Part shown: positions 47,766 through 50,079 of the stretch, in pieces
How positions within the stretch are numbered: the first letter of the stretch is position 1
How the letters are laid out: each line of letters starts with the position of its first letter
Assembly (NCBI RefSeq): GCF_003752505.1
Contig: NZ_RKHO01000001.1
Coordinates: 992,001 to 1,056,000, forward strand
Origin: Nocardioides aurantiacus
Lineage (GTDB): Bacteria > Actinomycetota > Actinomycetes > Propionibacteriales > Nocardioidaceae
Direction: 5' to 3'
DNA: 64,000 bases
Notes under the pieces: model-generated
Seen by the model: only the letters and a program-made list of their open reading frames with translations
Told to the model about the DNA's origin: nothing
The model's database searches: none
Made by a program: the position numbers and the translations under genes

Positions 47766-48662
<897 letters not shown>

Positions 48663-48673
48663 CCCACCTCGAC

Positions 48674-48709
48674 GCGAGCCCCCCTCCGCCCCGGCGGACG
48701 GGGGCTCGC
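48674..48709. terminator. Terminator after sucD
   Basis: GCGAGCCCCC (48674-48683) pairs with GGGGGCTCGC (48700-48709); further pairs extend it inward (CCGCC with GGCGG) with one mismatch. It starts 11 bp after the sucD stop. Confidence 0.85.
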
Positions 48710-48720
48710 TCGCGTCCGGG

Positions 48721-48865
48721 GCCGGTTTCCCAGGTGATGAACCCGAACTGCCTCCTCACACACCGCACACCGTGTGTGAGGAGGCGGGTTGCCGTGCGAG
48801 GAGGGCGACCGCCGCCGGCTTCCTGTGCACAGAGGCGACATGGGTTCATCACCTGGGAAACCGGC
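48721..48865. repeat. Nested inverted-repeat element (24-bp ends, 13-bp inner hairpin)
   Basis: The ends 48721-48744 and 48842-48865 are perfect 24-bp inverted repeats. Inside, CCTCCTCACACAC at 48751-48763 and GTGTGTGAGGAGG at 48772-48784 form a second perfect repeat. The element is 145 bp, has no credible gene and lies between convergent sucD and kynU. It could be a MITE-like mobile remnant or a structured bidirectional terminator. Outside the ends, CGCGTCC (48711) and GGACGCG (48872) are also complementary. Confidence 0.75.
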
Positions 48866-48897
48866 AGCGGGGGACGCGCCGGGACGGGCAGCCGCGG

Positions 48898-50079
48898 TCA
48901 GGTGACGGCGTTGCGGGCGGCGTACGCCGGGTCGAGGTGCTCCTCGTGCTCCAGGACCAGCACCAGCCGCTCGACGGCCGTCTCGACGTCGGCGAGGGTG
49001 TTGTAGAGCGGGGCGAACCCGAACCGGGCGATGTCGGGGTCGCGGAAGTCGCCGATGACGTCGCGGGCGACCAGCGCCTGCACCACGCCGTACGCCGCGG
49101 GGTGGCGCAGCGAGACCTGGCTGCCGCGCCGCCCCTGCTCGCGCGGGGTGACCACCTCGACGGCGTCCCCGACGTGCTCGTCGACCAGCTCGATGAACCG
49201 CTCGGTCAGGGCCAGCGACCGCTCCCGCAGCTCGGTGACCGTGACGCCGTCGAAGGCCTCCAGCGACGCCTCGAGCGCGCTCAGCGCCAGCACCGGCGGG
49301 GTGCCCGAGGCGAACGAGCCGACGCCCTCGCGCGGCTCGAAGTCGCGGGCCATGGCGAACGGCGTGGCGTGGCCCATCCAGCCACTGATCGGCTGGCGGG
49401 CGGCGGCCTGGTGGCGGGGCGCGACCCAGAGCCAGGCGGGGGAGCCGGGTCCGCCGTTGAGGTACTTGTAGGTGCAGCCGACCGCGAGGTCGGCGCCGGC
49501 CGCCGTCAGGTCGACGGGCACCGCGCCGGCCGAGTGGCACAGGTCCCACAGCACCAGCGCGCCGCGCTCCTGGGCGCGGGCGGTGATGCCGGGCAGGTCG
49601 AACAGCGCGCCGGTGCGGAAGTCGACGTGGGTGAGCGAGAGCAGCGCGGTGTCCTCGTCGACCGAGGCCAGCGGGTCGGCGGGGTCGCACCAGCGCAGCT
49701 CGAGCCCGAGCAGCTCGGCGACGGCCGCGGTCACGTAGCCGTCGGTGGGGAAGGTCGTCGGCTCCAGGACCAGCACGCGGCGGCCAGGGCGCAGCCGGGC
49801 GGCGGCGACGGTGGTCTTGAACAGGCTGACCGTGGTGCTGTCGCCCAGGTGGAGGTCGGCGGGGTCCACGCCGACCAGCGGGGCGAGGCGGGCGGCGACG
49901 CGTCCGACGAGCTGCATCCAGCCGGCGTCGTTCCACGACCGGATCAGCCCGCGGCCCCACTCCTCGCGCACCACCTGGGAGAGCCGGTCGGCGACGCCGG
50001 TGGGCAGCGCGCCGAGGGAGTTGCCGTCGAGGTAGACCAGCCCCTCGGGCAGCTCGAAGCGACCGGGTCCGGGGATCAT
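48898..50079 (-). CDS. kynU: Kynureninase
   Basis: A 393-residue PLP enzyme that makes anthranilate from kynurenine. It has YLDGNSLGALP near the start, the substrate loop SWNDAGW, DLCHSAGAVPVDL with the PLP Asp, and K205 in CTYKYLNGGPGSPAWLWV. The start is the ATG at 50077-50079, which overlaps the stop of the upstream membrane-protein gene (ATGA). No other tryptophan-degradation gene is nearby. It is probably for tryptophan catabolism; a biosynthetic role for a secondary metabolite is not supported by the surroundings. Confidence 0.95.
   Translation of the reverse strand: MIPGPGRFELPEGLVYLDGNSLGALPTGVADRLSQVVREEWGRGLIRSWNDAGWMQLVGRVAARLAPLVGVDPADLHLGDSTTVSLFKTTVAAARLRPGRRVLVLEPTTFPTDGYVTAAVAELLGLELRWCDPADPLASVDEDTALLSLTHVDFRTGALFDLPGITARAQERGALVLWDLCHSAGAVPVDLTAAGADLAVGCTYKYLNGGPGSPAWLWVAPRHQAAARQPISGWMGHATPFAMARDFEPREGVGSFASGTPPVLALSALEASLEAFDGVTVTELRERSLALTERFIELVDEHVGDAVEVVTPREQGRRGSQVSLRHPAAYGVVQALVARDVIGDFRDPDIARFGFAPLYNTLADVETAVERLVLVLEHEEHLDPAYAARNAVT

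What the first reader, a model, noticed from the sequence alone, without database searches (positions are those of the whole stretch)
48721..48865. 145-bp element with 24-bp perfect terminal inverted repeats and an inner hairpin
Perfect 24-bp ends plus a nested 13-bp repeat in a non-coding gap look like a MITE or structured repeat rather than a simple terminator, especially as sucD already has a terminator at 48674. Partial complementarity continues beyond the ends.
Basis: seen in the sequence. Interest (0 to 1): 0.65.

Follow-up and report, generated by a model that had tools for sequence, protein, structure and literature searches.

The report
Mobile palindromic repeat paired with nuclease gene
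The 145-bp hairpin is one copy of a dispersed repeat family that in this bacterium also brackets a DNA-binding/nuclease gene, and the same gene-plus-private-repeat arrangement recurs in many actinobacterial genomes, which suggests an undescribed kind of miniature mobile DNA run by an 'AbiEi-like' nuclease instead of a known transposase.

Summary
In detail: 24-bp perfect inverted ends (48721-48744/48842-48865) and an inner 14-bp hairpin. It is not single-copy. The complete genome holds 10 places with this repeat; a close relative (G009 = Marmoricola sp. Leaf446) holds about 17. The window copy is absent from the relative's sucD-kynU gap, and nine G009 copies have no counterpart in the window genome, so the family is mobile on a recent time scale. 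Ends are (C)CGGTTTCCC...GGGAAACCG(G), with no visible target duplication.

No IS carries these ends. The only gene bracketed by them, as ~90-bp inverted copies, encodes a 315-aa AbiEi_4 winged-helix protein with a C-terminal E-x32-D-x10-E-x-D-G-x2-K motif (PD-(D/E)XK/Vsr-like). Of 34 full-length homologues in the genus, 32 are bracketed by long inverted repeats scoring above every random-interval control. Genomes carry dispersed copies of their own gene's repeat: about 150 listed matches, all in the genome of the cognate gene. The pattern extends across Actinomycetota.

So it works like a REP/REPIN-RAYT system, but the HUH transposase is absent from this genome; the partner is an unrelated wHTH-nuclease. 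The association is shown; that the protein moves the repeats is inferred. I found no description in the held literature.

The parts
48721..48744 (+). left terminal arm GCCGGTTTCCCAGGTGATGAACCC (end of element at the CCGG)
   Evidence: 20 aligned copies share (C)CGGTTTCCCAGGTGATGAA with few differences
48842..48865 (-). right terminal arm, perfect reverse complement of the left arm
48750..48785 (.). inner hairpin GCCTCCTCACACAC...GTGTGTGAGGAGGC, present in the other copies of the family
48786..48841 (.). extra interior of this copy: third arm copy (GTGCGAGGAGG) and a further related half-hairpin (TTCCTGTGCACAGAGGC); absent from the standard 88-bp copies
   Evidence: comparison of copies; a similar tail (GTGCGAGGAG) is in the gene-bracketing copies
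48674..48709 (+). separate hairpin downstream of sucD (probable terminator), not part of the element; retained in G009, which lacks the element

Best explanation
The element is a non-autonomous copy of a palindromic repeat family whose partner is a single gene elsewhere on the chromosome (G000:C1:1303140-1304084, between lpd and sucB). That gene encodes an AbiEi_4 winged-helix DNA-binding domain fused to a PD-(D/E)XK-like nuclease domain and is bracketed by inverted ~90-bp copies of the repeat. Proposed mechanism: the winged-helix domain binds the hairpin arms (related AbiEi proteins are known to bind inverted repeats); the nuclease cuts or nicks at the terminal palindrome; the hairpin-forming unit, or the whole gene-bearing unit, is copied or moved into intergenic DNA without a visible target duplication. 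Shown here: repeat family, presence/absence polymorphism, gene bracketing, genome-specific pairing of gene and repeat, conserved nuclease-type residues, absence of a Y1/RAYT gene and of any IS with these ends. Inferred: that this protein binds, cuts and moves the repeats. It is therefore REP/RAYT-like in architecture, with an unrelated enzyme.
For: (1) Ten places in the complete 4.06-Mb genome; all terminal-motif matches with at most 3 mismatches are accounted for. (2) Relative G009: 7 shared places; window copy and the 3050361 copy absent; nine G009-only copies, most with a clean empty gap between conserved flanks in the window genome. (3) The only bracketed gene is AbiEi_4 (Pfam E 7e-9) with inverted copies at both ends in G000 and G009. 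(4) 32 of 34 full-length homologues in the genus and 8 of 8 inspected distant ones are bracketed by 60-115-bp inverted repeats above 41 bits; 187 random or ORF-anchored intervals of the window reach at most 41. (5) End sequences of 13 such genes searched in 24 genomes: every listed match (E <= 3e-11) lies in the genome of the cognate gene, with roughly 8-22 dispersed copies in several. (6) Same in other families of the phylum: 14 of 29 gene loci above 41 bits, dispersed cognate copies in most of 16 genomes, off-diagonal hits only between two genera of one family. (7) Dispersed units in G022 have sharp ends and unrelated flanks. (8) Invariant E205, D238, E249, D251, K255, R276 in 35 homologues. 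(9) No Y1_Tnp in 12 of 14 of these genomes, including the window's. (10) Gene-bearing units are themselves polymorphic between G000 and G009 at two sites.
Against: No excision or transposition was observed; no target-site duplication or excision product pins down a mechanism. The C-terminal nuclease assignment rests on residue pattern and sub-threshold profile matches (DUF559 E 0.004 in a distant homologue, AbaSI E 0.42); structure prediction was not run. G018 has four diverged copies of the window family but no close gene homologue (draft assembly, 92% complete). 2 of 34 genus homologues and about half of the more distant ones show no strong bracketing repeats.
Confidence: 0.62

Rival explanations
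1. Classical MITE: an internally deleted derivative of a DDE insertion sequence with the same terminal inverted repeats, mobilised in trans by that IS, now lost or elsewhere.
For: Short, terminal inverted repeats, dispersed, non-coding, polymorphic. Window-family copies look like the two ends of the gene-bearing unit joined with the interior removed.
Against: In the complete genome no other terminal-motif pair brackets any gene; no target duplication; in G022 the dispersed units are single double-hairpin ends, not two-ended elements; pairing with AbiEi_4 genes recurs with unrelated sequences in many genomes, which a lost IS would not explain.
Confidence: 0.1
2. True REP/REPIN elements mobilised by a RAYT (TnpA-REP, Y1 HUH transposase).
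For: Architecture is the same: palindromic, hairpin-forming, intergenic, genome-specific, gene bracketed by cognate repeats (compare PMC3116915, PMC3733652).
Against: No Y1_Tnp gene in the window genome, in G009 or in 10 of 12 other genomes that carry such repeats, while control genomes are detected. No GTAG tag at the ends.
Confidence: 0.03
3. The repeats are chromosomal binding sites (operators or self-markers) of the AbiEi-like protein, spread by ordinary recombination or selected for regulation; the gene is a regulator, orphan antitoxin or defence nuclease, not a mobility enzyme.
For: AbiEi and Rv2827c bind inverted repeats in their own promoters (PMC7319586); PADLOC models call the protein AbiEi.
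Against: Autoregulation does not explain an inverted copy downstream of the gene, sharp-ended ~80-145-bp units scattered at unrelated places, nor presence/absence polymorphism with intact flanks. Lone gene, no AbiEii partner between lpd and sucB. Invariant nuclease-type residues are unexpected for a pure regulator.
Confidence: 0.2
4. A bidirectional terminator or structured RNA between the convergent genes sucD and kynU.
For: Strong hairpin, convergent genes; by-product termination is possible.
Against: No T-tract terminator called at the element, no Rfam match, sucD has its own hairpin which the relative retains without the element, dispersed multi-copy family.
Confidence: 0.05

Closest known systems
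REP/REPIN elements with RAYT genes (REPtrons; Bertels and Rainey 2011, PMC3116915; TIRtrons, Di Nocera 2013, PMC3733652)
   Same: Short palindromic intergenic repeats, genome-specific families, inverted doublets forming hairpins, a single gene bracketed by inverted cognate repeats
   Different: Partner protein is AbiEi_4 winged helix plus PD-(D/E)XK-like domain, not a Y1 HUH transposase; no GTAG tag; units are longer (~80-145 bp, double hairpin); found here across Actinomycetota
MITEs of DDE insertion sequences
   Same: Small, non-coding, terminal inverted repeats, dispersed, polymorphic
   Different: No IS with matching ends in the complete genome, no target duplication seen, some families consist of single-ended units
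AbiE type IV toxin-antitoxin (AbiEi antitoxin; Rv2827c of M. tuberculosis, PMC7319586)
   Same: N-terminal winged-helix AbiEi_4 domain; AbiEi proteins bind inverted repeats next to their own gene
   Different: No AbiEii nucleotidyltransferase neighbour at the G000 locus; C-terminal domain carries conserved nuclease-type residues; repeats occur on both sides of the gene and genome-wide
Vsr/DUF559/AbaSI-type PD-(D/E)XK nucleases
   Same: Order and spacing of invariant E, D, E-x-D-G-x2-K residues; weak profile matches to DUF559, REase_MTES_1575 and AbaSI
   Different: Fused to AbiEi_4 and encoded between cognate palindromic repeats

Membership tests
REP/REPIN-RAYT system | Partner gene encodes a Y1 (HUH) tyrosine transposase | tested here: not met
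   PF01797 absent from the window genome and from 11 of 13 others with such repeats; partner is AbiEi_4
REP/REPIN-RAYT system | Gene bracketed by inverted cognate repeats; repeats genome-specific and dispersed | tested here: met
REP/REPIN-RAYT system | GTAG tetranucleotide tag at one end | tested here: not met
   aligned ends are (C)CGGTTTCCC / GGAAACCGG
MITE (DDE transposon derivative) | Terminal inverted repeats on a short non-coding dispersed element | tested here: met
MITE (DDE transposon derivative) | Target-site duplication at insertion | tested here: not met
   no common flanking duplication in 20 copies nor in filled/empty comparisons; fast-diverging gaps limit the test
MITE (DDE transposon derivative) | Autonomous transposon with the same ends and a DDE transposase | tested here: not met
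   all copies of the end motif (<=3 mismatches) in the complete genome inspected; the only bracketed gene is AbiEi_4
AbiE type IV toxin-antitoxin | AbiEi antitoxin domain | tested here: met
   PF13338 E 7e-9; PADLOC AbiEi 4e-20
AbiE type IV toxin-antitoxin | Adjacent AbiEii nucleotidyltransferase toxin gene | tested here: not met
   single gene between lpd and sucB; only the G000 locus was inspected in detail
PD-(D/E)XK (Vsr/DUF559-like) nuclease | Conserved catalytic E/D...D...ExK-type residues | tested here: met
   E205, D238, E249, D251, K255 invariant in 35 sequences
PD-(D/E)XK (Vsr/DUF559-like) nuclease | Significant profile or fold match | tested here: inconclusive
   only sub-threshold matches: DUF559 E 0.0036, MTES_1575 E 0.03, AbaSI E 0.42; fold not predicted
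Intrinsic transcription terminator | GC-rich hairpin followed by a T-tract | tested here: not met
   no terminator-like site called at the element

The most novel reading that the evidence does not exclude
AbiEi_4-PD-(D/E)XK proteins are a new class of DNA-mobilising enzyme, convergent with RAYTs: each recognises its own palindromic repeat, moves its own gene-bearing unit, and spreads miniature copies through actinobacterial genomes. Many genes now annotated 'type IV toxin-antitoxin system AbiEi family antitoxin' would then be mobile-element genes.
Probability: 0.5. Interest if true: 0.9.

Novelty: new variant of a known kind. Interest (0 to 1): 0.78.

Why it matters
REP/REPIN populations are the textbook case of short palindromic repeats persisting in bacteria through a dedicated HUH enzyme. 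Here the same arrangement occurs widely in a phylum, in genomes without that enzyme, with a winged-helix/nuclease protein in its place. If the protein moves the repeats, it is a new way of mobilising DNA and re-annotates a large, multi-copy 'orphan antitoxin' family (up to 12 copies per genome). It also gives a directly testable gene-repeat pairing in a named isolate, Marmoricola sp. Leaf446.

Tried and rejected
Single-copy terminator: rejected by copy number and empty sites. RAYT: PF01797 absent. IS-derived MITE: no IS with these ends. Known RNA: no Rfam match. Viral collection: no relatives of the protein found. The exact 16-mer scan of genome contigs gave mostly what look like chance matches; only the Leaf446 loci were useful (their contig lengths identify G009). 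PDB search with one sequence gave nothing relevant. A seeming inversion of the gene between G000 and G009 (L271/L272, L291/L292) is only opposite contig orientation. L276 site: not empty in the window genome but occupied by an unrelated segment. Structure prediction was not submitted, because the stated rule admits only window proteins or loci from certain tools, and the gene lies outside the window. Empty-site comparison for L219 stayed unresolved.

Full report
OBSERVATION. The reported element is real. Arms 48721-48744 and 48842-48865 are perfect 24-bp reverse complements, and an inner hairpin has 14-bp arms at 48750-48763/48772-48785. Both strands fold far below shuffled sequence (z -12.8 and -10.5). 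It lies between convergent sucD and kynU. sucD has its own hairpin at 48674-48709.

COPY NUMBER. The window is G000:C1:992001-1056000 of a complete 4,060,008-bp genome. A DNA search finds the repeat at 10 places, and a motif search for GGTTTCCCAGGTGATGAACC with up to 3 mismatches finds the same places and no others. Most copies are exactly 88 bp: (C)CGGTTTCCCAGGTGATGAACCC, an inner hairpin around CTCACACAC...GTGTGCGAGG, then the inverted end. The window copy is a longer variant with an additional half-hairpin. One copy (2120947) has one end only.

MOBILITY. Of 24 genomes of the genus, G009 (contig lengths equal those of Marmoricola sp. Leaf446) has about 17 copies. Seven places are shared at 88-95% flanking identity. 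The window copy and the 3050361 copy are absent from G009, and nine G009 copies have no counterpart in the window genome. Orthologous flanks were found for all eleven. Nine are filled/empty comparisons with both flanks recognisable, one (L217) is occupied in G000 by a gene-bearing unit of another subfamily, one (L219) stayed unresolved. At the L206 site the window genome keeps GGTTTCCCAGG, which may be a remnant of a deleted copy. No target duplication is seen. At the window site G009 has another short inverted repeat instead.

PARTNER GENE. Two one-ended copies, inverted to each other at 1302954 and 1304206, bracket a 315-aa gene between lpd and sucB (sucB is named from its sequence by eye). 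The protein matches AbiEi_4 (PF13338, E 7e-9) and PADLOC AbiEi models. Thirty-five homologues share invariant E205, D238, E249, D251, G252, K255 and R276, the pattern of PD-(D/E)XK (Vsr/DUF559-like) nucleases. Profile matches to DUF559, REase_MTES_1575 and AbaSI are only sub-threshold.

GENERALITY. Homologues occur in all 24 genus genomes, often several per genome. Comparing the 5' flank with the reverse complement of the 3' flank, 32 of 34 full-length homologues score above 41 bits and eight of eight inspected distant ones above 64. Of 187 control intervals in the window none exceeds 41, and mismatched flank pairs reach at most about 50 apart from paralogues or close relatives. Repeats share a plan (terminal palindrome, inner hairpin, often a third arm copy) but differ in sequence from subfamily to subfamily.

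COGNATE PAIRING. The end sequences of 13 genes were searched in all 24 genomes: all ~150 listed matches (E <= 3e-11) fall in the genome of the gene they came from, with about 8-22 dispersed copies in each of seven genomes. In G022 the dispersed units are ~80 bp, about 86-95% identical to the gene's repeat, with sharp ends and unrelated flanks. The same holds beyond the genus: 36 of 149 genomes drawn across the phylum have homologues at E <= 1e-20, 14 of 29 of these loci have bracketing repeats above the control maximum, and many of their repeats are dispersed in the cognate genomes, with cross-matches only between two genera of one family.

RIVALS. A Y1/RAYT gene is absent from the window genome and 11 of 13 others, so these are not RAYT-driven REPs. 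No IS carries the ends, so a classical MITE is unlikely. A terminator or RNA does not explain dispersal, and no T-tract or Rfam match was found. The strongest rival is that the protein is only a regulator or defence nuclease whose binding sites these are; AbiEi-family proteins do bind inverted repeats in their promoters (PMC7319586). Against this stand the downstream inverted copy, the sharp-ended dispersal, the polymorphism of repeats and of gene-bearing units, and the nuclease-type residues.

MECHANISM. Most likely, the winged helix binds the hairpin arms and the nuclease acts at the terminal palindrome, moving or copying the unit into intergenic DNA without target duplication. The association and polymorphism are shown; binding, cutting and causation are inferred.

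NOVELTY. Architecturally this matches REPtrons/TIRtrons (PMC3116915; PMC3733652) but with an unrelated enzyme. Ten literature searches of the held library gave no description; the library is partial, so an unseen report is possible.

Noticed in passing
L348:1388-2629 (G000:C1:366687-367928): At the site where G009 carries a gene-bearing AbiEi unit (L276), the window genome has an unrelated ~1.27-kb segment with two membrane-protein-like ORFs (130 aa and ~150-200 aa) flanked by another palindrome family (GGTTTCCCGAGGTCGCTCGGGAAACC).
   Followed up: partly
L232 (G009:C1:955300-956700), gap between sucD and kynU: The relative lacks the window element but has a different inverted repeat there (GGACACAAGT...ACTTGTGTCC), so the gap may be a repeated target.
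   Followed up: no
L236 (G000:C1:503800-505200): Tandem repeats (unit about GCCGAGCGGGCAGTTCTGCTGAGGGTGGGT) lie where G009 has a one-ended copy (L221).
   Followed up: no
L241 (G000:C1:26200-27600): The site empty of the L206 copy retains GGTTTCCCAGG, possibly the footprint of an imprecise loss.
   Followed up: no
G018:C74:11106, C36:38405, C27:71, C104:20431: Diverged copies of the window family in a genome with no close AbiEi_4 homologue found: possible orphan relics, or the gene is missing from the draft assembly.
   Followed up: no
G000:C1:1302954-1304206 and window 48662-48898: The gene-bearing unit and the window copy both sit between convergent genes of central metabolism (lpd/sucB; sucD/kynU); an insertion preference for gene 3' ends was not tested statistically.
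   Followed up: no
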